A DNA stretch of 42,212 nt. It comes from a virus. Under the pieces are notes generated by a model. It made no database searches and was not told the origin of the DNA. It was given only the letters and a program-made list of their open reading frames with translations. Position numbers and translations under genes: made by a program. Location: positions 1-42,212 of IMG/VR virus record IMGVR_UViG_3300036845_000193. One strand, 5' to 3'. Shown here in pieces: positions 9,597 to 39,500 of the stretch (positions are counted from its first letter, which is position 1; each line of letters begins with the position of its first letter).

Positions 9597-10283
9597 ATGG
9601 TCAATTTCATCAGTTACATCCGCGTCAGCACCGAGCGTCAGGGGCGCTCGGGACTTGGCCTCGAAGCACAGCGCGACACCGTCGCCCATCACATCAAGAT
9701 CACCGGCGGAACACTCCTGGAGGAGTTCCTGGAAGTCGAAACCGGCAAGGGCTCGAACGCCCTGGCGCGCCGGCCGCAGCTCCGGGCGGCCCTCGACGCC
9801 GCCAAGCGCGCCAAAGCCGTGCTGATCATCGCCAAACTCGACCGCCTGGCCCGCAACGTCGCCTTCATCGCCACGCTGATGGACAGCAAGGTCGAGTTCA
9901 TCGCCGCCGACAACCCGCACGCCACCCGCCTGACCCTGCACATCCTCGCCGCCGTCGCCGAGCACGAGCGGGAGATGATCAGCCAGCGCACCAAAGCCGC
10001 GCTCCAGGCCGCCAAGGCCCGAGGCACCCGCCTGGGCGTCTACAGCGACGTGCTCAGCGTGCAAAACAAGGCCGACGCGGTGCTGCGGCTGACCGAGATC
10101 GGGCCCGTGCTGCTGACCCTGCGCAAGGGCGGCCTGTCGACCCGCAAAATCGCCGCCCAGCTCAACCTGGACGGTGTCGCCTCACCCGGTGGGGGCCTCT
10201 GGCACCGGACCAGCGTTCAACGCGCCCTCGGGCGCCTTCAGGAGACAGCAGATGCCGAGCAACTGGCAACGATGGGTCGGTGA
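9597..10283 (+). CDS. Small serine recombinase (resolvase/invertase family)
   Basis: A 228-residue protein. The N-terminal catalytic domain (1-140) begins FISYIRVSTERQGRSGLGLE, with S11 as nucleophile. It continues with LIIAKLDRLARNVAF (D82, R83, R86) and an AEHEREMISQRTKAAL helix-E region. The C-terminal 60 residues (TLRKGGLSTRKIAAQLN, GLWHRTSVQRALGRL) form a helix-turn-helix. The size fits resolvases and invertases, not large serine integrases, so a role in inversion, resolution or cassette exchange is likelier than classical phage integration. There is no good ribosome site. A short hairpin precedes it, and its last 32 nt overlap the next gene. Confidence 0.88.
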   Translation: MVNFISYIRVSTERQGRSGLGLEAQRDTVAHHIKITGGTLLEEFLEVETGKGSNALARRPQLRAALDAAKRAKAVLIIAKLDRLARNVAFIATLMDSKVEFIAADNPHATRLTLHILAAVAEHEREMISQRTKAALQAAKARGTRLGVYSDVLSVQNKADAVLRLTEIGPVLLTLRKGGLSTRKIAAQLNLDGVASPGGGLWHRTSVQRALGRLQETADAEQLATMGR

Positions 10284-11638: not shown

Positions 11639-12079
11639 GTGTCTGAGTCGACGACGATCGAGGGCGAGGCCACCGTCGTCCGCGAGGGCCCCGTTCTGCG
11701 CCACCCCAGCGGCCAGTTCGCGCCGGGCAACGCCTGGGCCTACACCTCCGCGAACCCGTCCCCGGGTAGGCGCGGCTCGCGCGACAAGATCAGCCGCGAC
11801 TTCATCAGCGCCCTCGCCAAAGACTTCGAGGTCCACGGCGCCGCCGCCATCCGCAAGATGCGGATCAAGAAGCCGGCCGACTACTGCAAAGTGATCGCGT
11901 CGCTCCTGCCGAAGCAGTTCGAGGTCCGCGAGGAGCTGTTCGATGGCGTCTCCGACACCGAGCTTGCTGCAATCATCGCTGCCGCCCGAGGAAGTCTCGT
12001 TGCTGCTGAGGGCGGCCGAGGCCGAGATCAAGCGGCGGACAGAGACCAACCGCCTCCAAGCCTACCGGCCGTACCCTAA
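11639..12079 (+). CDS. terS: Small terminase subunit (DUF5681-type)
   Basis: GTG 11639 start. After GQFAPGNAWAYTSANPSPGR comes RRGSRDKISRDFISALAKDF, then AAAIRKMRIKKPADYCKVIA, SLLPKQFEVREELFDGVSD and TELAAIIAAARGSL. This matches the DUF5681/small-terminase-like proteins found directly before P22-type large terminases. It should bind packaging-start DNA and recruit the motor. The conserved core ends near residue 120. The last 25 residues (from AAEGGRG) are read out of frame over the start of the large terminase and look like an extension after loss of the original stop. Confidence 0.75.
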   Translation: MSESTTIEGEATVVREGPVLRHPSGQFAPGNAWAYTSANPSPGRRGSRDKISRDFISALAKDFEVHGAAAIRKMRIKKPADYCKVIASLLPKQFEVREELFDGVSDTELAAIIAAARGSLVAAEGGRGRDQAADRDQPPPSLPAVP

Positions 12080-12677
12080 GCAGGCGGTTTTCCACGCCGA
12101 GGGGTCGGTGCACCGCGAGCGCCTGCTGATGGCCGGCAACCAGCTCGGCAAGACCTTCAGCGGTGCGGCCGAGGCGGCGATCCACGCCACCGGCCAGTAT
12201 CCCGACTGGTGGATCGGCCGGCGCTGGGATCGCCCGACTCGGGGCTGGGCCGGATCGCAGACCGGCGAGGTGACCCGCGACGGCGTGCAGCGGCTGCTGG
12301 TGGGCGAGCCCAAAGACGAGCGATCCTGGGGCACGGGGATGATCCCCAAAACGACTCTGATCGACTGGTCGCGGCGCCAGCACGTGCCCGACGCCGTCGA
12401 CAGCGTCATGGTCCGGCACGTCAGCGGCGGGGTCAGCACCCTGGGCTTCAAGAGCTACGACCAGGGCCGCCAGAAGTGGCAGGGCGAAACCCTGGACTAC
12501 GTCTGGTGTGACGAGGAGCCGCCCATGGACATCTACATGGAGGCCCTGACCCGGACCAACGCCACCGCCGGGATGACCTTCATCACCTTCACCCCGCTGC
12601 TCGGCATGTCCGACGTGGTGCGCATGTTCCTCGGCGAGGAAGGCGAGCAGCGGATCGCTTCGGAGCAGCCGACATGA
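11943..12677 (+). CDS. terL: Large terminase, ATPase half (split gene, N-terminal fragment)
   Basis: This is the complete ATPase domain of a P22-like large terminase in 244 residues. It contains YRPYPKQAVFHAEGSVHRER, Walker A AGNQLGKT (64-71), a typical TGEVTRDGVQRLL segment, GFKSYDQGRQKWQGETLDYV, Walker B VWCDEEP (D190, E191) and the coupling motif FITFTPLLG (213-221). In intact relatives GMSDVVRxFL leads through a short linker into MTIxDAEHYTPEQ. Here a stop follows GEEGEQRIASEQPT, and the nuclease half is a separate gene at 14836. The start region overlaps terS by 137 nt. The stop overlaps the next ATG (ATGA at 12674-12677). Confidence 0.92.
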   Translation: MASPTPSLLQSSLPPEEVSLLLRAAEAEIKRRTETNRLQAYRPYPKQAVFHAEGSVHRERLLMAGNQLGKTFSGAAEAAIHATGQYPDWWIGRRWDRPTRGWAGSQTGEVTRDGVQRLLVGEPKDERSWGTGMIPKTTLIDWSRRQHVPDAVDSVMVRHVSGGVSTLGFKSYDQGRQKWQGETLDYVWCDEEPPMDIYMEALTRTNATAGMTFITFTPLLGMSDVVRMFLGEEGEQRIASEQPT

Positions 12678-13174
12678 GCGACGCGTGGACCCCAGGCGAC
12701 AGCGGCGGCGCCGGCGGCGGCGACACGGGCGCGCTCGTCACCGACCTGGGCGACAGCATGGGCGGCCTTCCCGACAGCATCGCGCCGAACACCGACTGGG
12801 GCAGCTCGGGTGACGCCCAGAGCGCCATGCAGCCCGGGCAGGCTGACCTCAACCCGGGCGCGCTCGCCATGCCGCAGCAGTTCACGGCGGCGGACCTGCA
12901 AGCGCCGAACCCCGGCCAGCTCACCGGCGGCCCGCAGGCCGTGAACATGAACCTCACGACCGGCGGCCCACCCCCGCCGCAGAGCTTCTACCAGAAGGCG
13001 TTGGCCGGCATCGCCAGCATGGCGCCGCCGGGCGCCGCCCAGCCCGCCGCCGCCCAGAAGATTTACGCGCCGCTGCCGGTGATCACCCCGCCGGCGCCGA
13101 CCACGTCGCAGCGCCTGGCGCAGATCGCCTCGGGGCAAATCCCCGTGCGCCCCGCCTGGCAGAACATCCGCTGA
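12674..13174 (+). CDS. Gly/Pro/Gln-rich protein inside the terminase gap (166 aa)
   Basis: First gene between the terminase halves, coupled by ATGA. It is low complexity: GDSGGAGGGDTGALVTDLGD, then NPGALAMPQQFTAADLQAPN and repeated Pro/Ala stretches. The last third has a short helix (QSFYQKALAGIASMAPPG) and ends TTSQRLAQIASGQIPVRPAW. Composition resembles linker-like virion proteins rather than an enzyme. There is no homing endonuclease, intein or reverse-transcriptase motif that would explain the split. Confidence 0.55.
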   Translation: MSDAWTPGDSGGAGGGDTGALVTDLGDSMGGLPDSIAPNTDWGSSGDAQSAMQPGQADLNPGALAMPQQFTAADLQAPNPGQLTGGPQAVNMNLTTGGPPPPQSFYQKALAGIASMAPPGAAQPAAAQKIYAPLPVITPPAPTTSQRLAQIASGQIPVRPAWQNIR

Positions 13175-13185
13175 GAGGCTGAACC

Positions 13186-13455
13186 ATGGCCGCCGCCCCC
13201 AAGCGCAAGCCCACCCACGCCGAGCGCGCGGCGCTGATCCGGGCGCTGCTCGCCCACGCGGTGGCGCAGCACGCCATGCTCCAGAACCCGGCCAACCACT
13301 CCGACGCGCCCCCAGGCGGCCCGCCGATGGCCATGCCGCCGATGGGCCCGCAGCCCAGCGACCCCAACTCGCCGCCGATGGGCGGCATGTCGGGAGGGCC
13401 CCCGGGCGGCGCCTCCCCGGCCTTCCCCTTCGGCCCGCCCCCTCCAGGACAGTAA
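13186..13455 (+). CDS. Pro/Met/Gly-rich small protein (89 aa)
   Basis: ATG 13186 with a weak GAGAGG ribosome site. The N-terminal 40 residues are a basic helix (KRKPTHAERAALIRALLAHA, VAQHAMLQNPANHSD). The rest is disordered Pro/Met/Gly sequence (GGPPMAMPPMGPQPSDPN). No family recognised. It is in line with its neighbours and 2 nt before the next gene. Confidence 0.55.
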   Translation: MAAAPKRKPTHAERAALIRALLAHAVAQHAMLQNPANHSDAPPGGPPMAMPPMGPQPSDPNSPPMGGMSGGPPGGASPAFPFGPPPPGQ

Positions 13456-13457
13456 CC

Positions 13458-13850
13458 ATGACCGCACCCCTTGTCGGCGACATCGTCTTCTACCGCAGCA
13501 GCGACGCCCCCACCCGGGCCGACCCCGCCATCGTGACCGCGATCCTCGACGATGGCGCAGACCCGTGCGTGAACCTCACCGTGTTCCGCGACGCCCAGGC
13601 GACCATCCAGGCCGCGCACGTCGAGCCGTGGGGCGAGGTCGATCCCGTGCCGACCGCCATGTCGCACGGCTACGCCACCCGCGCCGAGATCGACGCCGCC
13701 AGGAAGGCGCGCGAGAAGGCCGCCGAGGACGCCGCCAAGGCCAGCGCCGCCAAGTCCGCCGCCGACACCAAGGCCAAGGCCGAGCAGGCCGCCGCCCCGC
13801 CGCCCAAGGCCGAGCCGCCCAAGGCCCCGGCCCCCGTTCAAGGTCGCTGA
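13458..13850 (+). CDS. SH3-like phage protein with Ala/Lys-rich tail (130 aa)
   Basis: Residues 1-60 (PLVGDIVFYRSSDAPTRADP, AIVTAILDDGADPCVNLTVF, then AAHVEPWGEV) form a beta-rich module that I recognise as frequent near phage head genes. From residue 75 a long Ala/Lys/Glu helix (ARKAREKAAEDAAKASAAKS) ends in a Pro-rich tail. The charged repetitive helix could be a coiled coil. Function unknown; a head or packaging accessory role is suggested only by position. Confidence 0.6.
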   Translation: MTAPLVGDIVFYRSSDAPTRADPAIVTAILDDGADPCVNLTVFRDAQATIQAAHVEPWGEVDPVPTAMSHGYATRAEIDAARKAREKAAEDAAKASAAKSAADTKAKAEQAAAPPPKAEPPKAPAPVQGR

Positions 13851-13852
13851 TC

Positions 13853-13999
13853 ATGGCCAAAGGCAAACCCCCGGGCCCGACCAAGGCCCAGATGGCGGCC
13901 TACGAGAGGTCGCCGAAGGACAAGCGGGAAGACCGCAAGGGTGCGATGGCCATGGCGAAGGGCCCCAAGGGCCGCGTCGTGGCGGTGAAGCGGCGCTGA
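13853..13999 (+). CDS. Small basic protein (48 aa)
   Basis: ATG 13853 follows the previous TGA by 2 nt. The 48 residues are rich in Lys and Arg: MAKGKPPGPTKAQMAAYERS, then KDKREDRKGAMAMAKGPKGR and VVAVKRR. It has no hydrophobic core and is probably disordered and nucleic-acid binding. It resembles the basic proteins at 14003-14173 and 11464-11637. Confidence 0.55.
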   Translation: MAKGKPPGPTKAQMAAYERSPKDKREDRKGAMAMAKGPKGRVVAVKRR

Positions 14000-14002
14000 C
14001 CG

Positions 14003-14173
14003 ATGGCCAGGACAGGACGCGGGCCCACCGACGACCGCAAGGCCCAGGTGAAGATGCCGGCCGTCAAGCAGACCGCCCCCAAACCGAGCGGCCCGCGCGC
14101 GGTGGCCAAGCCCGACAGCCACCCCAACGCCGCCAAGATGGTCACCCGGGGGTCGCGGAAGGGGGGATGGTAG
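14003..14173 (+). CDS. Small basic protein (56 aa)
   Basis: ATG 14003, stop TAG 14171-14173, abutting the next ATG with no gap. Sequence MARTGRGPTDDRKAQVKMPA, then VKQTAPKPSGPRAVAKPDSH and a GSRKGGW end: Lys/Arg/Pro-rich and histone-tail-like. It is the second of three consecutive small basic proteins. Role unknown. Confidence 0.5.
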   Translation: MARTGRGPTDDRKAQVKMPAVKQTAPKPSGPRAVAKPDSHPNAAKMVTRGSRKGGW

Positions 14174-14386
14174 ATGGCCAAGCTCACCTCCCGCAGCCGC
14201 AACAGTCTCCCCGACAGCAAGTTCGCCGGGCCCGATCGCAGCTACCCCGTACCCGACGCGAGCCACGCCGCGAACGCCAAGGCCCGGGCGACTCAGGCCG
14301 TGAAAGCCGGCCGGATGAGCGAGCGCACCAAGGTGGCGATCGACCGCAAGGCCAACGGGGTGATCCAGCGCGACCGTAGCCGGTGA
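14174..14386 (+). CDS. Small phage protein of the LPDSKFAGPxRSYPVPD type (70 aa)
   Basis: It directly abuts the previous stop. The sequence SRNSLPDSKFAGPDRSYPVP followed by DASHAANAKARATQAVKAGR matches a very common small phage domain (I believe annotated DUF6582) that can stand alone or be fused to head proteins. The motif FAGP-x-RSYP-(V/I)-x-D-x-SHA is the hallmark. It is usually found near portal or head-protease genes, which fits its place here. Function unknown. Confidence 0.75.
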   Translation: MAKLTSRSRNSLPDSKFAGPDRSYPVPDASHAANAKARATQAVKAGRMSERTKVAIDRKANGVIQRDRSR

Positions 14387-14649
14387 GCGCCGATGTCGTC
14401 GCGCTCCCGGGCGTCGTCCAGGAGCTGCGCGGGGCCGATCCGGCCGTCGTGGAGGTGGCCGAGAAGCTGCTGGCCGACACCCAGGCGGGTGTCATCGCCG
14501 GCTTCGCCTACGCCGCCCTGACCAGCGACGGCATGATCAAGTGGAGCTGGATCGGCGCGGCGGTGAGCGGCAACGCCATGGCCGGCGCCATCGCCATGCT
14601 GAGCGCGGCGTTCAGCGCCAAGCGGCTCGCCGACTACGAGGAAGACTGA
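14383..14649 (+). CDS. Small phage protein (88 aa)
   Basis: GTG 14383 overlaps the previous TGA. After a charged helix (DPAVVEVAEKLLADTQAGVI) comes AGFAYAALTSDGMIKWSWIG and then AMAGAIAMLSAAFSAKRLAD. The pattern helix, then strand with G-x-A-Y-A, W-x-G, then an A-I-x-M-L helix, is common among phage and plasmid small proteins of unknown function. The Ala-rich C-terminal helix is amphipathic rather than clearly membrane-spanning. Confidence 0.65.
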   Translation: MSADVVALPGVVQELRGADPAVVEVAEKLLADTQAGVIAGFAYAALTSDGMIKWSWIGAAVSGNAMAGAIAMLSAAFSAKRLADYEED

Positions 14650-14651
14650 CC

Positions 14652-14831
14652 ATGCTCCTCACCCTGCTCGTCATCGTCATCGTCATCGGGCTGCTGCTCT
14701 ACCTGGTGCAGGTGCTGCCGCTCCAGCCGCCGTTCAAGACCATCGCCCTGGTGCTGGTGGTGCTGATCTGCATCGTCTGGCTGCTCTCGGTGGTCGGCGG
14801 CATCCCGGGACTGGGTCACCTCGAACGTTGA
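14652..14831 (+). CDS. Two-pass small membrane protein, Thivi_2564-like (59 aa)
   Basis: Two hydrophobic helices are obvious: MLLTLLVIVIVIGLLLYLVQ and IALVLVVLICIVWLLSVVGG, joined by a VLPLQPPFKT loop. This arrangement and the loop match the small membrane family I know as Thivi_2564, found in many phages and bacteria. It is the last gene before the terminase nuclease half and ends 4 nt upstream of that start. Role unknown. Confidence 0.7.
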   Translation: MLLTLLVIVIVIGLLLYLVQVLPLQPPFKTIALVLVVLICIVWLLSVVGGIPGLGHLER

Positions 14832-14835
14832 TCCG

Positions 14836-15570
14836 ATGTCCCGCTCGATCATCCAGATGACGATCGAGGACGCCGAGCACTACACGCCCGAGCAGCGCCA
14901 GGCGGTCATCGACAGCTACCCGGTGCACGAGCGCGAGGCGCGCACCCTGGGCATCCCGGTCATGGGCTCCGGTCGGGTGTTCCCGATCGGCGAGGAGGGG
15001 ATGGTCATCGAGCCCATCCGCATCCCGCCGCACTGGGCGCAGATCAACGGCCTGGACTTCGGCTACGACCACCCCTTCGCGGCGGTCAACATGGCCTGGG
15101 ATCGCGAAGCCGACGTGCTCTACGTCTGCAAGGAGTATCGCGAGCGCGAGACCACGCCGCTGATCCACGCCGGGGCGATCAAGCCCTGGGGCGACTGGAT
15201 ACCGTGCGCCTGGCCCCACGATGGACTCAGCCACGACAAGGGCTCTGGCTACGCGCTGCGCGACCAGTACGCCGCCCAGCAGCTCAACATGCTCCCCGAG
15301 CGGGCGACGTTCCCTGACGGCGGCTTCGGGGTCGAGGCCGGCGTCATGGAGATGCTGGACCTGATGCAGACCGACCGCTGGAAGGTGTTCAAGACCTGCG
15401 GCGGCTGGCTCAGCGAGTTTCGCATCTACCACCGCAAGGACGGCCTGATCCAAAAGGTCCGCGACGATCTGATCAGCGCCTCGCGCTACGCGATGATGAT
15501 GCGCCGCGAGGCCAAGACTGCGCCCCGCGTGCGCAAGAACCGCGACTACTTCAAGAGCTGGATGAATTGA
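14836..15570 (+). CDS. terL: Large terminase, nuclease half (split gene, C-terminal fragment)
   Basis: This is the RNase-H-like nuclease domain of a P22-like large terminase, 244 residues. It opens SRSIIQMTIEDAEHYTPEQR, the sequence that in intact relatives continues from the ATPase linker. Likely metal ligands are D74 in GLDFGYDHP, D129 in WPHDGLSHDKG and D211 in RDDLISASRYAMMM. GSGRVFPIGEEG and LPERATFPDG are also family hallmarks. The ATG has no strong ribosome site and lies 4 nt after the previous stop, so translation probably depends on coupling. The two fragments total 488 residues, about the length of an intact enzyme. Confidence 0.9.
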   Translation: MSRSIIQMTIEDAEHYTPEQRQAVIDSYPVHEREARTLGIPVMGSGRVFPIGEEGMVIEPIRIPPHWAQINGLDFGYDHPFAAVNMAWDREADVLYVCKEYRERETTPLIHAGAIKPWGDWIPCAWPHDGLSHDKGSGYALRDQYAAQQLNMLPERATFPDGGFGVEAGVMEMLDLMQTDRWKVFKTCGGWLSEFRIYHRKDGLIQKVRDDLISASRYAMMMRREAKTAPRVRKNRDYFKSWMN

Positions 15571-15791
15571 TGCGCCTCTACGACATCAAGACCGACGAGT
15601 TTCGCGAGCCGACGCAGGAAGACATCGACCACCTGGCGCTCGCCGAGGCCGCCCACGGCGTGATGGTGGTTGGGGTGCGGACGCTGATCGAGGTCTGCCG
15701 CGAAATCGCCAACGGCGAGACCGTCCCGTTCGACGTCGCCGCCGCCATCCGTCGCGGGTGCGACGCCGCCGTGGCTTCGCAGGCCACCTGA
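15570..15791 (+). CDS. Small hypothetical protein between terminase and portal (73 aa)
   Basis: ATG 15570 overlaps the terminase TGA as TGATG; the TTG at 15567 is less likely. The product is alpha-helical: FREPTQEDIDHLALAEAAHG, VRTLIEVCREIANGETVPF, then AAIRRGCDAAVASQ. No family recognised. Its stop overlaps the portal ATG. Confidence 0.6.
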   Translation: MRLYDIKTDEFREPTQEDIDHLALAEAAHGVMVVGVRTLIEVCREIANGETVPFDVAAAIRRGCDAAVASQAT

Positions 15792-17848
15792 TGGCTGACG
15801 GCGGCCTCCACTCCCGCACGGCTGCCTACCTCGACGGCTCGCCCCGTATGCCGGCGAGCGAGAAGGGCGACGACGACATCCTGAAGGAGGCCCGCGAAGC
15901 CTACGACATCTGCACCGAGCACGAGCGCCTGAACCGCATCGAGGCGATGGACGATCTGCGCTTCGTGGGGCTGGCCGACCAGTGGCCGGCGCGCGTTCGG
16001 GCCCAACGCGAGCAGGAGGGCCGGCCGGTCCTGACGGTCAACAAGCTGCCCAGCTTCATCCGCCAGGTGGTCAACGACGCCCGCCAGAACAAGCCGGCGA
16101 TCACCGTCCACCCGGCCAACGACGCCGCCGCGCCGGCCACCGCCGAGATCATCTCCGGGCTCATCCGCAACGTCGAGTACACCTCGGACGCCGACGTCGC
16201 CTACGACACCGCCCTAGAGAGCGCGGTGACCATCGGGTTCGGGTTCTTCCGGGTGAACACCCGCTGGGCCGACGACGACACCTTCGACCAAGACCTGATC
16301 ATCGACGCCATCCCCAACCCGTTTTCGGTGTTCGGCGACCCCTTCTCGATGCGCCACGACAGCGCCGACTGGAACACCGCGTTCGTGGTCGACATGATCC
16401 CCAAGAAGCGGTTCGAGGCGATGTACCACGGCACGCCGGCCGTCGACTGGGAGGCCGAGCAATACTACCGGGGCATGTTCCAGCCGTGGCTGGAGGACGA
16501 CCAGGTCAGAGTCGCCGAGTATTGGAAACGCGAGCCCTTCGAGCGCCTGATCCTGGCGCTGTCGAACGGCCAGGTGGTCCCCGAGGACGAGTACGAGCTG
16601 AACAAGCCGATGTGGGACGCCATGAACGTCTACGTGGTCGGCCAGCCGCGCACCGTGCACTCCCACAAGGTGGTGCAGTATCTGATGACCGGCGTGGAGG
16701 TCATCCGCAAGATCAACTGGGGCGGCGTCTACATCCCCATCGTGCCGGTCTACGGCCAGGTGGTGGTGATCGGCCAGGACCGCCGCTTCCGGGGCCTGGT
16801 GCGCGACGCCAAAGACCCGATGCGGATGTTCAACTACTGGCGCACCATGGCCACCGAGCTGGTCGCGCTCGCCCCCAAGGCCCCCTTCGTCGGCAAGAAG
16901 GGCGCGTTCGAGACCGACATGGCCAAGTGGGAGACGGCCAACAGCGAGGCGCACGCCTTCATCGAGTACGACGGCGAGCTGGCTCCCACCCGCCAGCCGT
17001 TCGCCGGTGTGCCGGCCGGCGTGCTCCAGGAAAGCCTGAACGCCTCGGATGACCTGAAGGCGGTCACCGGCCTCTACGACGCCAGCCTGGGCGCCAAGAG
17101 CAACGAGACCAGCGGCCGGGCGATCCTGCTGCGCCAGAAAGAAGGCGACACCTCCACCTTCCACTTCATCGACAACCTCAGCCGGGCGATCCGCCACACC
17201 GGCCGCATCCTCATCGACCTGATCCCCCGGGTCTACACCACCCCGCGCGTGCTGCGGGTGATGAGCCCCGACCGCAAGGCGACAGCCGTCCCGGTCAACC
17301 AGCCGATCCAGGGCGACCCCGGGCCCGATGGGCTGCCCGTCGAGCACATCTTCGACCTCACCGCCGGCAAGTACGACGTCACCGTCGAGGCCGGCCCCAG
17401 CTTCACCACCAAGCGCGAGGAAGCCGCCAACCAGATGCTGGAGCTGATCCGGGCCTTCCCGCAGGCGGCGCCCGTGCTGGGCGACCTGCTGGCCGAGAAC
17501 CTGGACTGGCCGGGCGCCGACAAGGTCGCCCAGCGCCTGTCGCTGCTGCTGCCGTCCGTGCTCCAGCCGCACGGCCCGCAGGGCGCCGCGCCGACCGGGC
17601 CGCCCGGGCCGCCGATGGTCCCGGCCGCGATGCACCAGCAGGCCATGGCGCACGCACAGACCGCCCAGGGCCAGGCGCAGTCGGCGCAGACCCAGGTGCA
17701 GCAGCTCCAGCTCCAGATCGCCCAGATGCAGGCGAACAAGCAGATCGAGCAGCAGAAGGCCGACACCGGCGACTTCCGCGCTCAGACCGAACGCATGAAG
17801 GCCCAGGCGGACATCGCCAAGCCTCAGATCGTCCCCGGCGGCGGGTAG
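15791..17848 (+). CDS. Portal protein (P22 gp1-like)
   Basis: I chose ATG 15791, which overlaps the previous TGA; the frame is open from 15758. The 685-residue protein has the P22-type portal signature: GRPVLTVNKLPSFIRQVVND near residue 75, ARQNKPAITVHPANDAAAP, YDTALESAVTIGFGFFRVNT and DAIPNPFSVFGDP. It forms the dodecameric DNA gate at one head vertex and the docking site for terminase and the gp4-like adaptors. The last 80 residues are Gln-rich (HQQAMAHAQTAQGQAQSAQT), probably a coiled coil like the P22 portal barrel. Length fits the family. Confidence 0.92.
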   Translation: MADGGLHSRTAAYLDGSPRMPASEKGDDDILKEAREAYDICTEHERLNRIEAMDDLRFVGLADQWPARVRAQREQEGRPVLTVNKLPSFIRQVVNDARQNKPAITVHPANDAAAPATAEIISGLIRNVEYTSDADVAYDTALESAVTIGFGFFRVNTRWADDDTFDQDLIIDAIPNPFSVFGDPFSMRHDSADWNTAFVVDMIPKKRFEAMYHGTPAVDWEAEQYYRGMFQPWLEDDQVRVAEYWKREPFERLILALSNGQVVPEDEYELNKPMWDAMNVYVVGQPRTVHSHKVVQYLMTGVEVIRKINWGGVYIPIVPVYGQVVVIGQDRRFRGLVRDAKDPMRMFNYWRTMATELVALAPKAPFVGKKGAFETDMAKWETANSEAHAFIEYDGELAPTRQPFAGVPAGVLQESLNASDDLKAVTGLYDASLGAKSNETSGRAILLRQKEGDTSTFHFIDNLSRAIRHTGRILIDLIPRVYTTPRVLRVMSPDRKATAVPVNQPIQGDPGPDGLPVEHIFDLTAGKYDVTVEAGPSFTTKREEAANQMLELIRAFPQAAPVLGDLLAENLDWPGADKVAQRLSLLLPSVLQPHGPQGAAPTGPPGPPMVPAAMHQQAMAHAQTAQGQAQSAQTQVQQLQLQIAQMQANKQIEQQKADTGDFRAQTERMKAQADIAKPQIVPGGG

Positions 17849-18872: not shown

Positions 18873-20069
18873 GTGGCCAACACCATCCTCACGGCTTCGC
18901 AGATCACCCGCGAAGCCCTCCGTATCCTGCACCAGAAGCTCAACTTCATCGGGACGATCAACCGCCAGTACGACGACGCCTACGCCAAGGAGGGAGCCAA
19001 GATCGGCGACACCCTGCGCATCCGTCTGCCCAACCAGTACGTGGTGCGCAACGGCCCGGTGCTGACCACCCAGGACACCGTCGAGCAATCGACCAGCTTG
19101 CAGATCGCCACCCAGAGGGGCGTCGACCTGAACTTCACCTCGGTGGACCTCACCCTGTTCCTGGACGACTTCAGCCAACGCATCCTCGAACCGGCGATGG
19201 CCGTGCTCGCGTCGAACATCGAGAGCGACGCGATGAGCATGTACCAGACGGTCTACAACGCCAGCTACAACGCCGGCCAGCCGGCGGTCTTCAAGGGCCT
19301 CCTGGCGGGCGGCAAGCAGCTCACCGACAGCCTGTGTCCGCGTGACCGGCGCACCGCCAACCTGTGCACCCAGGACACCGTCGACCTGGTCGACAGCTTG
19401 AAGGGTCTGTTCCAGGCCAGCGACAACATCGCCGAGCAATACCGCGAAGGCATGATGGGGCGCACCGCCGGGTTCGACTTCTACGAGAACACCCTGTGGC
19501 CCGCCGTCACCCGTGGGGCCGCCAACGCCCTCTACACGGTGGGCGCCGCCAACCAGTCCGGCGCAAACCTGGCGATCGGCGCCGGGACCGGGGCGGCCAA
19601 CGTCGGCGACATCTTCACCATCGCGGGCGTGTTCCGGGTCCACCCCGAGACCAAGCTGTCGACCGGCGTTCTCCAGCAGTTCACGGTCACCAGCGTGACC
19701 GGCTCACCGATGACCTCGATCGGCATCTCGCCGGCCATCGTCACCGCGACCGCCGGCCCGGGGTTCCCGGCTGCGCAGAACGTCAGCAACTCGCCGGCCG
19801 CCGCCGCCCTGCTCACCTTCCTGGGCACGGTCGGCGCCGTGGACGGCCTGTCGATGCTCTACCACGAGGACGCCTTCACCTTCGCGACCGCCGACCTGGT
19901 CATGCCCAAGGGCATCGACTTCGCCGCCCGCGAAGTATTCGACGGCCTGTCGCTGCGGATCGTGCGCATGTACGACATCATCAACGACAAGTTCCCCTGC
20001 CGTCTCGACATCCTCTACGGCTACAAGGCGATCCGGCCGCAGTTGGCGTGCCGGTACATCAACAACTGA
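18873..20069 (+). CDS. Major capsid protein (P22 coat family)
   Basis: A 398-residue protein starting at GTG 18873. The N-terminus (ILTASQITREALRILHQKLN, FIGTINRQYDDAYAKEGAKI, GDTLRIRLPNQYVVRNG) and the segment GVDLNFTSVDLTLFLDDFSQ are characteristic of P22-coat-type major capsid proteins, which have an HK97 fold with an inserted I-domain. The C-terminal SLRIVRMYDIINDKFPCRLD, ILYGYKAIRPQLACR also fits. The ribosome site is weak (GAAAGG close to the start), which is odd for the most abundant virion protein. A strong terminator follows. Confidence 0.9.
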   Translation: MANTILTASQITREALRILHQKLNFIGTINRQYDDAYAKEGAKIGDTLRIRLPNQYVVRNGPVLTTQDTVEQSTSLQIATQRGVDLNFTSVDLTLFLDDFSQRILEPAMAVLASNIESDAMSMYQTVYNASYNAGQPAVFKGLLAGGKQLTDSLCPRDRRTANLCTQDTVDLVDSLKGLFQASDNIAEQYREGMMGRTAGFDFYENTLWPAVTRGAANALYTVGAANQSGANLAIGAGTGAANVGDIFTIAGVFRVHPETKLSTGVLQQFTVTSVTGSPMTSIGISPAIVTATAGPGFPAAQNVSNSPAAAALLTFLGTVGAVDGLSMLYHEDAFTFATADLVMPKGIDFAAREVFDGLSLRIVRMYDIINDKFPCRLDILYGYKAIRPQLACRYINN

Positions 20070-30512: not shown

Positions 30513-33500
30513 ATGGCTGACGGCTCGCGCCTCGCTGGTCCTTCCTACGCTCTGAGCGGCGGTGGGGATGGCGCCGCCACGCCCGCGTCGAACCTGACCG
30601 GACTGAGCGTGCAGCTCGGCTCCACGGCCGACCCCGATCCGGCCAGCCAGGGCGAGGCGCTGATGACCCTCGGGCAGTTGGGCACGACCCCCGAGCTGGC
30701 GCCCGGCGATCCCAACCGGCTCCTGATGTCGTCGGGCCTGCCGTTGCCCAACTACGCGCCCCCGCCGCTCGGCATCTGGGACGCGACGCGGGGGGCTCTC
30801 GCCGAGACCATCAGGGGCATCGGCACCCACGACCCCGAGGCGCTCGGCCGCGCGGTGGACTTCCTCACGGGCCAGCCGATCGGCCAGACGTCGCAGGCGC
30901 TCCGGGCCGGGACCGACATCGCCGCCGGCCAGACCAGCGAAATCCCCGCAGCCTTCGCCAACCTCATCCGTCACGAGAACGACCCGGGCATGACGCGCGG
31001 CCTGCCGATCGGCGAGGGCGCGGGCTGGGCGGCGGCCGAGAGCGACCTGGGCTTCCCCGCCCGCACCCAGCCCGCGAAGGGGCCCGACTACGCGCCGCCG
31101 GCCTTTGCGGCGCCCCTGGCCGCGCAAGGCGAGGCGAACGTCCCCGTCAACCCGGGCTTCGCCTCGCAGGTCGCGTTGCAGGTCCCGCAGCTCGCCGAGT
31201 TCGCCGGCCTCGCGGCTGTGCCTGAAGTCGGCGCGCCTCTCGCCGCCGCCGCGATGGGCGGCCAGGGCATCGTCGAGCAGCAGGAGAAGGCCGAGAAGGC
31301 GGGGCTGGCTGGCACGCCCGAAGCCTACCGCGCCGAGGCGCTGGCCGGCGGCCTCCAGGGCGGCCTGGCGCTGGCCCCGCTCGGCGCGGCGACGGGCGCG
31401 CTGCTGCCGGCCGGTCTGAAGCAGACCGGGCTCAACGTCCTGGAGCGGCTGGGGTTCGAGCAAATCCCGGGCTGGGTGGCGCGCGGCGCTGGGGAGCTGC
31501 CGGGCGGGGCGCTGTTCGGCGCGGGCTCTACGGTCGCCTCCAACCTCGCCACCCAGCAGCTCAACCCCAAGCAGGACTTGTTCGAGGGCGTCGTCCCCGG
31601 CTCGGCGCAGATGGCCGCGATCTCGCTGCTCACGGGGATCGCTCACGGCCACGGCGAGGCGCCGGTCTACACCCCCAAGGGCATCGAAGGGCCGGCGGCC
31701 GACGCCACCAACAGCTACCTCCAATCCCTGAGCGACGCGCACCTGGCCGCCGCCAACGCCGCCGACGATCCGATGCACATGATGGCGCATCTCAACGCCG
31801 CCCAGGCGCTGGCGGGCAAGACGATCACGCCCGAGCAAGCCACCAACATGGCCGCCACGGAGCGCCAAAAGGGCTGGCTGTTCCGAGGACAGCCGCCCGT
31901 CGCGCTCACCCCGCACGACGCGGCGGTCGACCGCGCCCAGGCGCGCATCGAGCAGATCGACCCCTCGGCCAAGCCGCCGCCAGAGTCAGAGTTCGCGCCG
32001 CCGACAACAGTCACCACGCCTGCGGTCGCCGATCTCAACCAACGCCTGGACGTTCTGGGGCGGGAGTACGCCGCGATGAGCGCCGCCGATCGCGCGTCGC
32101 CGCTCGGCCGGGCGATCGGCGTCGCCAACCAAGTCGGTGGCGTGCTCGGGCCCACGACGATGACGGGGGGCGTGGAGCACACGCCCATCTCGATCCAAAC
32201 CGTGCAGGCGATCCGCGCCGCCCGCGACGCCGGGCGCCAGGACGTGGTGCAGGCGATCCTGGATCGCGGTGACCGGCAGGCCGCGACCGCCGAGAGCGAC
32301 CCCGAGGGGCAGGCGTTTCTGGCGCAGCAGCTCCACACCGCCGCCAACGCGCCGCCGATCACTGACCCGGCCGGCGACGAGGCGTACCGCCAGGCCGTCG
32401 ACCTGGTGCAAGGCGGCGGCACGCCCCACCGCTACTTCGTCGGGCCGGCGATCGGCATCAGCCACGACGCGGCCGAACAGCACCTGCGGGAGATGACGCT
32501 CAACGGCATCGTGTCCAACGTCGACGAGCGTGGGCTGCGCACCCTCCTGCCTCCCGAGACTGGCGGCGCGCCGCCTCCCGTGACGACGCCGCCCGCCGCC
32601 ACGACTCAGCCGACCACCACCGAGCCCCCGCCTCCCGAGACGGTCACGCCAGGCGCAGAACCGACGACGACGCCGACCGTGCCGGCCGACATCAACCCGC
32701 TGGCGAAGCCGCCGGTCGACCCGCGCGACCAGGTCACCGTGATCTCCCACTACAACCCGCAAACCAGGGGCACCTACTACGGCGTCAGCATCAACGGGCG
32801 GACAGTGGTCGAGCCCACCCAGGGCGCCCAGAAAGCGTGGGAGCTGGCCCACGCCCTCGTGGGCCCGTTCCCGGCCGACCGCGTCATCGACACGGCCACT
32901 GTCGGGCCAGTACGTGCGCAAGGCGTGCCGGACGATCCGCAGCACGCGCACTTCGGACCCGCCGACCTGCCTCGCGAGGGGGCGCTGTCCCTGCCGGCGA
33001 TCCACCAGGCGTACTTCGCGGCCTACGGGTCCAACAAAACGGCGGCTGGACACGGCCTGGCGTTCCAGGCCGGCGCGCTCGGGGCTCCCCTCGACCCGGC
33101 GCTGAGCAAGAAGTTCCTACCGGCCTACATGGCGGGCTCGCGCTACCGCGACATGGCCATCAACGCCGGCGCGCCGACCGGGCCTGCCGCGCCCGTCGTC
33201 GCGCCCCGGCCGGCGCCCGTGGCGGCGGCGCCCGAGCCCACCGCGCCGCCCCCGCCGACGTTCCAGCACGGCGACACCGTCCACTGGACCGACAGCAAGG
33301 GCGTCAATCGCCAGGGCACGTTCGAGGGCACTTACGACGGCCATCCCATCGTCAGGCAACCGAGCGGCTGGGCGACGCTCCAGGCGGGTGTCGATCTGCA
33401 ACCGGGCCCGCACCCCGACCCGAACAGCGTCATGGTCACCCAGCCCGGCCAGAAGATGTCGGACGGGACGCAGCTCGCGGGCATGGATCATCCGCTCAAC

Positions 33501-36500
33501 TGGCCCGCCGACGTGCCGCCGATGGTCTACCACGGCTACGGGCGCCCCGATCAGGCCAGCGCCTACAACAGCGACTTCCACGGCATGACGACGCCGATCC
33601 TGGGACCCGGCCGCTACTTCGCCTTCAACAAGGCCGACGCCGGGGAGTTCGGCCCCAACGTCGAGAACGAGCTGGCCCCGCTCAAGAACCCGGTCGTGAT
33701 CCGCTCGGACGCGGATTGGAGAAACCTCACCGAGCAGGCCGGCTGGGACTTCGCCGGTATGCCCCAGGGGGAGGACATCGAAAACCTCCACTACATGCTC
33801 CTGGGCCGAGGCTACGATGGCGCGATCGTCCACTGGGACGACAACACCGAGACCGACAAGGACAGCCGGGGCAACTGGATCAAGCTGCTGCGCAACACCT
33901 TCGGCACGCCCCAGGCGGTCGACTTCACGCGCACCGCTGGCCCCGCTGAAATCGCCGCCAAGGCCGCCGCGCCGTTGCCCGAGCCCGAGCCCAAGCCCGC
34001 GCCCACTGACACCACCCCGGCCGGCGGCGGGGCTCCAGCGCCCGCCCAGGTGGCCCCCACGGTGGCTGGGACGCCGTGGGACTTCGTCGACACCTTCCCG
34101 ACGCCGCAGCCGGGCAGCGAGACGGTCTACGCCAACCCCAACGACGTCGCCGAGCAGCGCGCCTACCACGACGCGGTGGCCAAGCGGCTGCTCGGGCTAC
34201 AGCTCCAGGATCGCCAGCTCACCGCCGCGCTTGAGGGCGGTTACGACGTCGAGAGCGGGCGCCCGCTGGACGAGCTGAAGAACGGGGCCAAGGTCGAAGC
34301 CTCGATGAAGGAGGACCAGCGCAACGCGGCCGGCGCGTACCACGGCTCCCTGGAAGCCTACCGGAGCCTGTTCGGCGCGGACGCGGCCAACGCCTTCCGC
34401 GATCACATCGAAAACATGTTCGCCGGGCACACGCCGTTCCCCAAGGGGTACGAACGGGCGCAGGACGCCATCCGCGAGCACCACATCGCCACGGCGCTGG
34501 GCGAGCCCGCCGACAGGGGCAGCACGGCCCGCGCCTATGCCGGGTCGGAACGCTACGGCTTCCCCGGCGCGGACCCGACGACCAGGATCGCCCAGGCGAT
34601 GGAGCTGGCCCAGTTCCGGAGCAGGCTGGAGGCCGAGAACCCGAAGGGGCTCAAAGCGATCGACGCCCTCCCCGGCGGACCCCGCCCGGGCACCACGGGC
34701 GACATCGTCAAGCGCCTGGAAGCCGTCCTCGGCGCCACGAAAGACGGGCGCTCCCGTGTGGCGGAATACCTCGGCGCGCAGAATGACGAGATGAGGGGTT
34801 ATCGCCCGCACGGCGTCCCCCTCAGCCAGCAGCGCGGCCTCATGACGCCCTACACCCGCGACGCGGTGGACGCGATCCTCAACCCCGTGCTGGCCAGGCC
34901 CAACGAGCCGCCTCCCGAGCGCGCTGCGCGGCCGGGCGCGACGCAGGGCCTCACGGCGGCCGACTCGCTGGTGATGGACCCCAAGAAGAACGCGATGGGG
35001 AACGCCAACATCCAGTTGGCGACCGACGCCAACGGCCAGTGGTGGCACCGCACGACGGCCATGCACGCGGAGGGGACCGGCCTGTGGCCCGACCACCACG
35101 AGGGCCCGTTCGCCACCCGCGAAGAGGCGATCCGCGACGGCCTGGCGCGCATCCGCATCAGGATGGCCGAGCCCGAGCGGTACGGTCATCCCAGCGCCGT
35201 CGAAAAGAGCCAGATGGCCCAGCGCGCCAAGTTCCGGGCGTGGGCCGACACGGTCGAGGCCGGCCTGGCGAAGACGGCGCCGGCCGCAGGCCAGGGCGCG
35301 GCGACGCCGGCCGAGCCCACGGTCGCCCCGCCAAAGCCGGGCGAACGCTACGTGCCGATCGTGCCTCGCGGGACCGAGCAAGCCATCACGATGCCGATCG
35401 TCAAGACCGGCATGGCGCGCGCTCAAATCCAGGTCGGCCAGGGCGCGGACGGCAAGTGGTACGCCGGCCACGGCTACGAGCTGGGCGCCGAAACCGGAGC
35501 GCACATCCCGATCGGCCTGGGCCCCTACGACACGCGCGCCAAGGCGATCTTCGCCGCCGGGCTCGACCTCCACGCCAGCATGGTCCGCGACCTGGCCCAC
35601 TACGGCGACCGCGCCACGCCAGGCATGAGGGCGGCGGCCGAGCGCATCGGCAAGTGGCTGGCGACGGTCGATCCCGACAAAATCCCGCAGACCAGCACGT
35701 CGGCCCACGTCGTCGGCGCCGAGCCCGAGCGCCAGCCGCTCGACTACCGCCCGGGCGCCGCCGGCACGATCAGCGTACCCGGGCGGCCCGACCTCGCCGT
35801 GCAGTACGGCCTGGCCGAGGCCGGCGACCTCACCGCCTCGAACAACGCCGACTTCTCGGCCAACCCCGAGTACCCCGCCGAGCTGCAACCCCGTCAGCGC
35901 GACCGGGGCGCCATGCGTGGCCAGATCGCCGCCATGCTCAACCCCGAGCAGTTCCGTCCGGGGATGCTGGGAGCCTCCACCGAAATCGGCACGGGCGCCC
36001 CGATGGTCGGCCCCGATGGGGTGGTCGAAAGCGGCAACGGCCGGGTCATGGCGCTGCGCCAGATGTACGCCGAGGGCGGCCCGGCCGCGCAGGCTTACCG
36101 CGACTACCTGGAGAGCCAGGGCCACGACACCAGCGGCATGAAGCAGCCGGTCCTGGTGCGCGTGCGCCAGACGCCGCTCACTCGCGCCGAGCTGATCCCC
36201 TACCTCCAGGACGCCAACACCAGCGCCATCGCTAGGATGGGCGCCGGCGAGCAGGCCAAGGTCGACGCCTCCAAGCTCACTGGCGAGGTGCTGGACAGCT
36301 ACCGGGGCGGCAGCCTGACCAACGTCGAGAACGTCCCGTTCGTGCGCGCCGTGCTGGGCCAGATCGCCTCGCCCGCCGAGCTGAACCAACTGGTCGACGC
36401 CAAGGGCGCGCTGTCAGCCGAGGGTGTGCGCCGGCTGCAAGCGGCGTTCACCGCCAAAGCCTACGGCGACAACTCGCTGGTGCAGGCGATGTTCGAAAAC

Positions 36501-39500
36501 CCCAACCCGGACATGGGCACGCTGGGCAAGGCCGCCGTGGCCGTGGCGCCCCAGTGGGCGATGATGCGGGAGGCCGCCGCCAGGGGTGTGATCGACCCCG
36601 GGCTCGACCCCACCGACGCGCTCAACACCGCGTTCAGCCTGGTGCGCCAGCAGCGCGAGGGCGCCGTCAATCTCGCCGACAAGTACAGCAGCATCGACGC
36701 CTTCTCGGACGAGGACCCGCGCGTCGAGCGGTTCCTGCGGCTGTTCTACCAGGGCGACGGCTTCAGGCGCGTGCGGGCCGGCGACAACATCGCTCGCGAC
36801 CTCCAGGACTACACCGCCATGGCGCGGGCGCAGGCCACCAACGACATGTTCATGGCCCCCGCCCACGAGATGTCGACGGCCTTCCTGAACGGCCTGATCG
36901 AGCGCGCCAACACCGCCAAGGCCAAGGGCCAGCCCGAGCTGACGCTGGATGAACAGGCGCCGGGCGCGCTCTACACCCTGCCGGGGCGCGACGAGCCCGA
37001 AGGCGAGACGCCCGACCAGCTCGACCTCACCACCTGGCACGGCTCCCGCCACCTGTTCGGCCAGCCCGACGACCGCTTCATCGGCGAGGGCGAGGGCAAC
37101 CAGACCTACGGCTACGGCCACTACAGCGCCGGCAATCTCGCCACCGCCGAGACCTACCGCAACGCGGGCGGCGATCGTCGGCGCCTGGACACCTTCGGCA
37201 CGGAAGGCGAGCCCTGGCACGTGCAGCAGTTGGTCGAGAAGGCCCGCAACCACCTCGACATCACCACGGAGAAGGTCTCCGACATCACGCCCGAGGCTGT
37301 CGCGGGTGCTGTCGGCCAGCGGCTCGACAAAATCTGGCCTGAGCACGTGCTCCGGGACCCTGGCGCGCAGGCGCAGATCGCCCAGCACGTGGCCGACGTC
37401 GCCGACAGGGTGCGGCGGGGTGAGATGGGTGTTCGCGCCACCGGCACTGACGGCAACATCTACCGCTGGGAAGTCCCCGCGCACGACGAGTTCATCGACC
37501 ACGACCTGGCGCTCTCCGAGCAGTCGCCGAAGGTGCGCGAGGCGATGCAGCGGATCAGCGACCAGATCGCCATCGCCCGGCGCTGGGGCTACTCGCTCAA
37601 CGAGGTGCGCTCGCCGAACCGGGTGGACCGGATGGCCGAGCTGCTGGGGACGATGAAGCTGGGTTCGCGCGAGCGCCCGGACATCATGGAGGCGACCTCC
37701 CGCGAGGGACACGCAACCGGCTCTGACTTCTACCAGGAGCTGGCGCACTACGCCTCCGAGCACATCACGGAAGGGCGCACCAAGGCCACCGGCCCGCGCG
37801 AGGCCACCCGCGTGCTGCGGGAGGAGGGTGTCGCCGGCCTGAGCTACCTCGACCATCGGTCGCGCGACGTGCTCAACATCGACAAGTTCCGCCGGCAGGT
37901 GGTCGCGGGCGAGAAGCGGCTGCGCGAGTACGGTCCCAACCCGCCCCAGAACATCATCGACCAGCTCAGCCGGGCGCGCTTCGCCCTGGAGTACGCGGAG
38001 GCGATCAAGAACCCCACCTGGAACTACGTCACCTTCGACCCGAGCCGCATCCAGGCCGAGCGGGTGGAGGAGGGCGAGCACCCCGAGCCGGCGACTCTGG
38101 AGGACCGCGAGCACCCCGAGGCCGACACCCTGGAGCGCCCCGAACCCGACCCCCTGGTGGGCCGTGGCCGGCGCCGCCCGGCGGGCACGATCGCCGAGGC
38201 CCAGGCGCGCGGCGTGGTCGGCTTCACCTCCTCCAAGATCAAGCGCGTCGACCAGATGGCGCACGAGCTGGGCAAGCTGCTCGGCGTGCCGATCCGGGTC
38301 GGCCGGATGGGTGGCGGGACGCTAGGCTACTTCGTCCCCAGCACGGGCGAGACGAAGGTCAAGTGGTTCGACGAGTACAACACCGTCGCGCACGAGCTGG
38401 GCCACGCGCTGGAGCTGCGCGACCGGGGCCTCTACCCCGAGCTGAACAAGGCCATCAAGGCGCACGCGGGCGAGCTGCGCCCCATCGACTACATCCCCAA
38501 CCGGGCGAACAAGACGGTCGGCCTGCACGAGGGGTTCGCCGAGTTTTTCCGCTACTACATGACCAACCAGAACCACGTGCTGCGGGAGACGCCGAACTTC
38601 TACAAGGCGTTCGAGGCGGCGCTGGCCAAGGACAACCCGAAGCTGCTCGCCGGGCTCCGCGAAATCCAAAAGGACTACCACGACTTCCTGGCCTCGGGCC
38701 CGACCGAGCACCGCAACGTGCTCCACCCCAGCGAGTACATGGTCAAGAAGGGCCCGGCCGCCTGGGCGGCCATGGCCAAGGACGCCGCGAGCCGTCCGAT
38801 GGGCTGGATCGGCGAGCTGGCCGACGAGGCTTACCGTCGCTACATCGACCACCTCAACCCGCTGAAGATCGCCCGCAACCGGCTCATGGCGATCCGGGCC
38901 CACAACCTCGGCTACCGCGAAGACCTGCCGGCGTGGCGCGACCCCTACAAGCAGGCCCAGATGGGGGTCGACGCCTACAGTGCGGCCCACGCCGACCTGG
39001 TGTACGGCGTCCACAAGTACCACACCAACGAGCTGGCCAACGTCCCGCAGGGCGCGCCGGCGCCGGGCACGGCGGCCATCCCCGACCGGCCCGCGTCGTC
39101 GCTGTACGCGGCCCTCGAACATGCCGTGGGCAGGCCGCCGGGCGTGCTGACGCCGGGCGCCAGGTGGGACATCAACCAGCTCGCCGAGTTCGGCCACTAC
39201 CTGGTCGCGCGCCGGTCGGTGCAGCTCTGGGATCGCTACAACCGGAAGCAGCTCCGACGCCCCCCGGATGGCCTCTCGGCGACCAGCAACAAGAACGCGG
39301 TGATCTGGTACGAGCAGCACAACCCCACGTGGGCGAAGGCCGCCGAGATGGTCTACGAGTACAACCGGGCGCTGTGGGACAAGCGCCTCGACAGCGGCCA
39401 GATCACCGCACAAATCCACCGCCTCGGGATCGAGATGAACCCCGACCACGTGCCGTTCGCGCGCACCCGGAAGGGGCGCCCCGGCGGCTCGGGCGGCGAA

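What the first reader, a model, noticed from the sequence alone, without database searches (positions are those of the whole stretch)
11943..15570. Large terminase split into ATPase and nuclease genes by 2,158 nt carrying eight small genes
Seen: the ATPase half keeps Walker A AGNQLGKT, Walker B DEE and FITFTPLLG, then stops at 12677. The nuclease half restarts at 14836 with IIQMTIEDAEHYTPEQ and keeps its three likely metal-binding Asp. In relatives I know, these segments join directly through a short linker. Both halves are 244 aa and total about one intact enzyme. The inserted genes are coupled, on the same strand, and contain no homing endonuclease, intein, group II reverse transcriptase or transposase motif, which are the usual causes of split terminases. 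Inference: the packaging motor works as two separate chains, possibly with inserted genes acting as partners.
Basis: partly seen in the sequence, partly recalled or inferred. Interest (0 to 1): 0.87.

Follow-up and report, generated by a model that had tools for sequence, protein, structure and literature searches.

The report
Phage packaging motor made as two chains
This phage makes its DNA-packaging enzyme, normally one protein, from two separate genes, and comparison with over a hundred relatives shows that this two-part enzyme is an old, stable and repeatedly evolved design whose join has become a landing place for unrelated small genes.

Summary
A P22-type large terminase (TerL) is encoded as two 244-aa genes, 11943-12677 and 14836-15570, with 2,158 nt and eight small same-strand genes between them. 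It is not an assembly error: an independent contig (L053) has the same arrangement, with both halves under purifying selection (dN/dS 0.19 and 0.28). It is not peculiar to this phage. Of 265 related loci with both halves, 104 are clean splits at the same junction, including prophages of cultured Bradyrhizobium, Methylobacterium, Sphingomonas and Denitrobaculum. Most split pairs simply overlap by 4 nt (ATGA). Inserts of 0.1-2.5 kb enter later at that seam; a 109-nt insert lies between flanks 90-91% identical to an empty site. On the ATPase tree one supported clade holds 52 split and 7 nested intact rows, and further splits lie elsewhere. Intron, intein, frameshift and second-copy explanations fail wherever tested. 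One correction: the break is not between ATPase and nuclease domains but inside the ATPase domain, so the "nuclease" chain carries the last ATPase strand and the lid helices. The chains must therefore rebuild the motor in trans (inferred). The eight inserted genes are best read as cargo, not partners.

The parts
11943..12677 (+). TerL chain 1: ATPase core with Walker A, Walker B and coupling motif (TFTPLLG), ending just after the helix GMSDVVRMFL
   Evidence: Pfam Terminase_6N 2-159/215, E 1.1e-25; PHROG 31467 (unknown function), E 2e-47; dN/dS 0.19 versus L053
12674..13174 (+). inserted gene 1, 166 aa, Pro/Gly-rich; its ATG overlaps the ATPase stop (ATGA seam)
   Evidence: ORF list; conserved in L053, 76% identity, dN/dS 0.36; no family match
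13186..13455 (+). inserted gene 2, 89 aa, Pro/Met-rich C-terminus
   Evidence: dN/dS 0.20
13458..13850 (+). inserted gene 3, 130 aa, Ala/Lys-rich C-terminus
   Evidence: dN/dS 0.49
13853..13999 (+). inserted gene 4, 48 aa, basic
   Evidence: dN/dS 0.23
14003..14173 (+). inserted gene 5, 56 aa, basic
   Evidence: dN/dS 0.53
14174..14386 (+). inserted gene 6, 70 aa, PHROG 16160 (unknown function); homologues lie upstream of the ATPase gene in L029, L030 and L110
   Evidence: PHROG 16160, E 2e-25; positions of homologues
14383..14649 (+). inserted gene 7, 88 aa; starts at a GTGA overlap with gene 6
   Evidence: dN/dS 0.93, weakly constrained
14652..14831 (+). inserted gene 8, 59 aa, very hydrophobic (probable small membrane protein), PHROG 23151 (unknown function)
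   Evidence: PHROG E 2.7e-7; dN/dS 0.80 on few changes
14836..15570 (+). TerL chain 2: last ATPase strand and lid helices (about residues 1-45), then the RNase H-like nuclease
   Evidence: Terminase_6N 164-212/215 plus Terminase_6C, E 1.5e-24; 4dkw E 5.3e-58; model pLDDT 84.8, 4dkw rmsd 1.3 A; dN/dS 0.28
11639..12079 (+). probable small terminase (TerS) by position; overlaps the ATPase gene start by 137 nt
   Evidence: homologous ORF at the same place in many relatives; only PHROG 8771, unknown function, E 0.001
15758..17848 (+). P22-type portal protein
   Evidence: Pfam P22_portal, E 2.5e-191
18873..20069 (+). P22-type coat protein
   Evidence: Pfam P22_CoatProtein, E 1.4e-31

Best explanation
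The phage packages its DNA with a P22-type TerL that is translated as two polypeptides. Chain 1 is the ATPase core up to the helix after the coupling motif. Chain 2 begins with the strand and lid helices that complete the ATPase domain and continues into the RNase H nuclease. The chains associate so that chain 2 supplies the last strand and the lid in trans, and ATP-driven lid movement is passed across a chain boundary to the nuclease/DNA-handling domain. The split is old. It most likely began as adjacent genes overlapping by 4 nt (ATGA), which couples their translation. Once separated, the seam became a tolerated landing site for whole small genes; the eight genes here are such later cargo. 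SHOWN: two ORFs, same break in many relatives, purifying selection on both, inserts at the seam, break inside the ATPase domain. INFERRED: association of the chains, completion of the ATPase in trans, cargo nature of the inserts.
For: Same break and same eight genes in an independent contig, L053. 104 clean split loci of 265 with both halves, 89 non-redundant; 41 overlap by exactly 4 nt, 26 carry inserts over 100 nt. Prophages of cultured bacteria are split, and the genomes searched hold no unsplit copy of this family (second Denitrobaculum copy also split). Trees: concatenated 9 changes against a shuffled mean of 46.6; ATPase-only 6 (46.3); nuclease-only 15 (46.1). dN/dS 0.19 and 0.28, portal 0.21. 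SD-like motif before 19 of 32 gapped nuclease starts, background 0.19. Empty/occupied pair L132/L067, flanks 91% and 90% identical. Intact relative model: break in the loop 231-236 between helix 224-230 and strand 242-247. In the chain 2 model alone that strand is not formed and residues 1-10 have pLDDT 58. The lid segment is as conserved in split (66%) as in intact (63%) enzymes.
Against: No direct evidence that the chains bind each other or package DNA. No free-living isolated phage with this split was found: the isolated relatives listed or inspected have one ORF, apart from a two-piece match in KR296686 that was not examined. Seven intact enzymes sit inside the main split clade, so a single chain remains viable. 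The two halves recombine independently in both split and intact enzymes, so the number of origins is uncertain.
Confidence: 0.84

Rival explanations
1. The halves are rejoined after transcription or translation: an intron removed from the mRNA, a split intein, or programmed frameshifting yields one continuous TerL.
For: Introns and inteins are known causes of interrupted terL, for example group I introns in Jug phages (PMC12363816) and inteins in Mic1 (PMC7156551). One relative here, L024, has an apparent intein in an otherwise unsplit TerL.
Against: No Rfam intron match in the window. The insert is a run of coding genes, most of them constrained. With 4-nt overlaps there is no room for an intron or intein. 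No in-frame slippery heptamer in 43 overlapping pairs of the -1 type, and in 9 of 50 overlapping or abutting pairs the nuclease frame is closed within two codons upstream of its start.
Confidence: 0.05
2. The locus is broken: TerL is dead here (decayed element or assembly error), and the real motor is elsewhere.
For: The record is a single 42.2-kb virus contig, so a second terminase off the contig cannot be excluded. Some relatives do look decayed: L136 (5.1 kb of FAD oxidoreductase and GST-like genes) and L208.
Against: Independent contig with the same structure. Purifying selection on both halves and the portal. All catalytic residues kept. Large tree-clustered set of split relatives. No unsplit copy of this family in searched genomes of split prophages.
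Confidence: 0.04
3. The two-chain motor is real, and the eight inserted genes are functional partners or regulators of it, kept between the halves for that reason.
For: All eight are conserved with L053 in order and strand, and most show dN/dS below 0.55. Gene 1 overlaps the ATPase stop by 4 nt, so translation may be coupled.
Against: Other split relatives have no insert or unrelated inserts: HNH endonucleases in L025 and L077, an NnrU-like protein in L196, single small ORFs in L012, L079, L184, L257. Gene 6 homologues sit upstream of the ATPase gene in other phages. Genes 7 and 8 are barely constrained.
Confidence: 0.07

Closest known systems
P22 gp2-type large terminase (Pfam Terminase_6N + Terminase_6C)
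   Same: Same motifs, same nuclease fold (4dkw, 47% identity over 185 columns), same neighbourhood with P22-type portal and coat
   Different: One chain in P22 and in the isolated relatives inspected; two chains here, broken inside the ATPase domain
Parabacteroides phage phiPDS1 TerL (MN929097 gp45/gp46; PMC10773633)
   Same: An isolated phage whose TerL is annotated as two CDS; the authors noted it and suspected codon usage or assembly
   Different: Halves of 337 and 148 aa with 92 nt between them, so the break is probably at a different place; reported as a single case
Intron- or intein-interrupted terL (Jug phages PMC12363816; Mic1 PMC7156551; N4-like JA1 PMC3670811)
   Same: TerL coding sequence interrupted
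   Different: There the protein is restored by RNA or protein splicing; here no intron or intein was found and the pieces have their own stops and starts
Herpesvirus UL15/pUL89 terminase genes (two exons with other genes between; from memory, not checked here)
   Same: ATPase and nuclease coding parts separated in the genome by unrelated genes
   Different: Herpesviruses rejoin the exons by mRNA splicing into one protein

Membership tests
P22-type TerL | Walker A, Walker B and coupling motif of the ATPase domain | tested here: met
   Terminase_6N E 1.1e-25; AGNQLGKT, DEE, TFTPLLG in the translation
P22-type TerL | RNase H-like nuclease with conserved acidic residues | tested here: met
   Terminase_6C E 1.5e-24; 4dkw rmsd 1.3 A; D74, D129, D210/D211 invariant
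P22-type TerL | Both domains on one polypeptide | tested here: not met
   Separate ORFs 2,158 nt apart; stops in all three frames of the gap
P22-type TerL | Next to a P22-type portal and coat gene | tested here: met
   P22_portal E 2.5e-191; P22_CoatProtein E 1.4e-31
Intron-split terL | Group I or II intron structure in the insert | tested here: not met
   No Rfam match at gathering score; with threshold E 1 only two sub-threshold chance matches
Intron-split terL | Spliced mRNA restoring one frame | not testable with these tools
   No transcript data held
Split-intein TerL | Intein fragments on the facing ends of the two halves | tested here: not met
   Chain 1 ends about 14 residues after the conserved helix, chain 2 starts a few residues before the conserved strand; 4-nt overlaps in 41 relatives leave no room
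Homing-endonuclease-interrupted gene | Endonuclease ORF in the gap | tested here: not met
   No endonuclease match for the inserted genes; gene 4 was scanned in PHROGs only. Met in two relatives, L025 and L077 (HNH_3)
Programmed-frameshift gene | Slippery site in an overlap of both frames | tested here: not met
   No overlap between the two frames in the window; 0 of 43 in-frame slippery heptamers in overlapping relatives

The most novel reading that the evidence does not exclude
A large lineage of tailed phages runs a two-polypeptide packaging motor in which the nuclease chain donates the last core strand and the lid of the ATPase in trans, so that the force-transmitting element lies across a protein-protein boundary; this split has arisen more than once at the same point and can be re-fused.
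Probability: 0.7. Interest if true: 0.78.

Novelty: new variant of a known kind. Interest (0 to 1): 0.7.

Why it matters
TerL is treated as a single-chain enzyme universal to tailed phages and is widely used as a marker gene. A stable, recurrent two-chain form shows that ATPase and nuclease need not be covalently joined, which makes the question of how ATP hydrolysis is coupled to DNA movement directly testable: mix, swap or titrate the chains. It also explains why a profile library labels the ATPase half "unknown function" (PHROG 31467), and bears on why one reported split TerL was suspected to be an artefact. Searches for full-length TerL may truncate or miss these phages.

Tried and rejected
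Rfam scan for introns, two thresholds: nothing. Sequence search of the PDB with chain 1: chance matches only. Search for an isolated phage with this split: the relatives listed by tblastn were single-piece except KR296686 (two pieces, not examined), and MJing1, ctDrO704, EBPR podovirus 1 and RHph_Y25 were checked by annotation; Bradyrhizobium phages ppBjS10J-1, ppBeUSDA76-1 and -2 show no pair of adjacent terminase genes in their annotation. Eight apparent splits were discarded as likely pseudogenes or sequencing frameshifts (L015, L022, L034, L047, L142, L144, L185, L263), and L136/L208 were left out of the separate trees as probably rearranged prophages. The Arg of VVxRF (70 of 84 intact, 5 of 60 split) was considered as something lost whenever TerL splits and rejected: it is a mark of the main clade, since several independent splits keep it. 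Preferential swapping of halves in split genes was considered (27 of 85 close nuclease pairs discordant versus 49 of 801), but a few recombinants explain most cases in both groups.
Full report
OBSERVATION. The window is a single virus record of 42,212 bases. Two ORFs of 244 aa each, 11943-12677 and 14836-15570, are the two parts of a P22-type TerL. Between them lie 2,158 nt with eight same-strand ORFs whose ends overlap or abut. The next genes are a P22-type portal and, further on, a P22-type coat. Catalytic residues of both parts are kept.

THE BREAK IS INSIDE THE ATPASE DOMAIN. Pfam Terminase_6N is 215 positions long; chain 1 covers 2-159 and chain 2 begins with 164-212. The P22 nuclease crystal fragment aligns only from residue 43 of chain 2. 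In the AlphaFold2 model of the intact relative L056 (mean pLDDT 88.7), the break falls in the loop 231-236 between helix 224-230, just after the coupling-motif strand 212-216, and strand 242-247, which is followed by helices 257-266 and 272-277 and then the nuclease. Chain 2 modelled alone folds its nuclease well (4dkw rmsd 1.3 A) and forms the lid helices, but leaves the strand unformed with pLDDT 58. From the D6E and Sf6 structures the lid is the element that moves on ATP hydrolysis and contacts the P-loop residue (PMC5727402; PMC7617512). The contact between P-loop and lid must therefore run between chains here (inference; which helices are the lid is assigned by position, not by superposed coordinates).

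NOT AN ARTEFACT. The contig L053 carries the same split and the same eight genes (ATPase 90%, nuclease 92% identity). dN/dS between the two is 0.19 (ATPase), 0.28 (nuclease) and 0.21 (portal). Of these, 41 overlap by exactly 4 nt, 12 overlap otherwise, 8 are 0-50 nt apart, 2 are 51-100 nt apart and 26 have over 100 nt between the genes. In 70 of 89 the nuclease start codon lies at the same distance from the conserved DDAEH block. Split prophages occur in cultured Bradyrhizobium sp. C9, Methylobacterium sp. R2-1, Sphingomonas sp. Root720 and Denitrobaculum tricleocarpae, whose genomes hold no unsplit copy of this family. The second Denitrobaculum copy is split as well, with only a few bases between the genes. 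The loci were chosen by similarity to the window, so the share of split enzymes is not a prevalence estimate.

HISTORY. On a tree of 145 representatives without junction columns (IQ-TREE, quick search), the window lies in a supported clade of 25 rows, all split. The label needs 9 changes against 46.6 for shuffled labels. Because halves recombine, separate trees were made. The ATPase tree needs 6 changes, and a supported clade of 59 rows holds 52 split and 7 intact. Two of those intact ones, L024 and L172, keep the Met typical of split enzymes in place of the Arg of VVxRF, which fits re-fusion. The nuclease tree needs 15 changes, with supported branches forcing 7. L118/L128/L119, L042/L044 and L059/L073/L081 stand away from the main clade, so splitting at this junction probably happened more than once. 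The exact number is uncertain.

THE INSERTS. The seam takes different genes in different phages: HNH endonucleases in L025 and L077, an NnrU-like protein in L196, single small ORFs in L012, L079, L184 and L257, and up to about seven ORFs in L110. In most cases the first insert starts on the ATPase stop as ATGA, GTGA or TTGA, as gene 1 does here. L067, with 109 nt inserted, and L132, with none, share 91% of the last 500 nt of the ATPase gene and 90% of the first 600 nt of the nuclease gene. Inserts therefore arrive between genes that are already separate. The window's eight are conserved only with L053, and gene 6 relatives sit upstream of the ATPase gene elsewhere. Cargo is the better reading, though most are under selection.

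RIVALS. No intron family matched. There is no room for an intein in the overlapping pairs. No slippery heptamer occurs in 43 overlapping pairs of the -1 type, and in nine of 50 the nuclease frame is closed directly upstream. A second terminase outside this contig cannot be excluded for this phage itself.

KNOWN. Literature searches found interrupted terL by introns or inteins and one isolated phage, phiPDS1, with TerL in two CDS that its authors suspected of being an artefact; judged by gene lengths its break is elsewhere. No report of a lineage-wide split TerL was found in the open-access library searched; subscription papers and annotation guides are not covered. My recollection that some phage annotation guides have separate names for ATPase and nuclease parts of TerL was not checked.

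VERDICT. A real, old and recurrent two-chain TerL: new variant of a known kind. Two chains: shown at sequence level, very likely in fact. Trans completion of the ATPase: likely inference. Partner role for inserts: unlikely.

Noticed in passing
L024:96-2501: TerL of 802 aa in one ORF with an apparent intein inside the nuclease domain (between DDILSA and CRYAMMM); its closest relative L025 is split with an HNH gene at the seam.
   Followed up: partly
window 11639-12079: TerS-like ORF overlaps the start of the ATPase gene by 137 nt in another frame; similar long overlaps in several relatives.
   Followed up: no
window 30513-42158: A single ORF of 3,881 aa fills the last 11.6 kb of the record.
   Followed up: no
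window 9597-10283: Resolvase/invertase N-terminal domain gene (Pfam E 9.7e-26) just upstream of the packaging genes.
   Followed up: no
intact versus split TerL, window residue 228 of chain 1: A nearly invariant Arg after the coupling motif (70 of 84 intact) is Met, Leu or Ser in the main split clade (5 of 60 split rows keep Arg); its role is unknown.
   Followed up: partly
L224, L222, L174 versus relatives: ATPase and nuclease halves of unsplit TerL have also been exchanged by recombination (nuclease 83-92% identical, ATPase about 55-63%).
   Followed up: no
L136:889-6000 and L208:3038-6000: Prophage terL halves separated by 3-5 kb with host-like FAD oxidoreductase genes; probably rearranged or decayed prophages rather than working splits.
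   Followed up: partly
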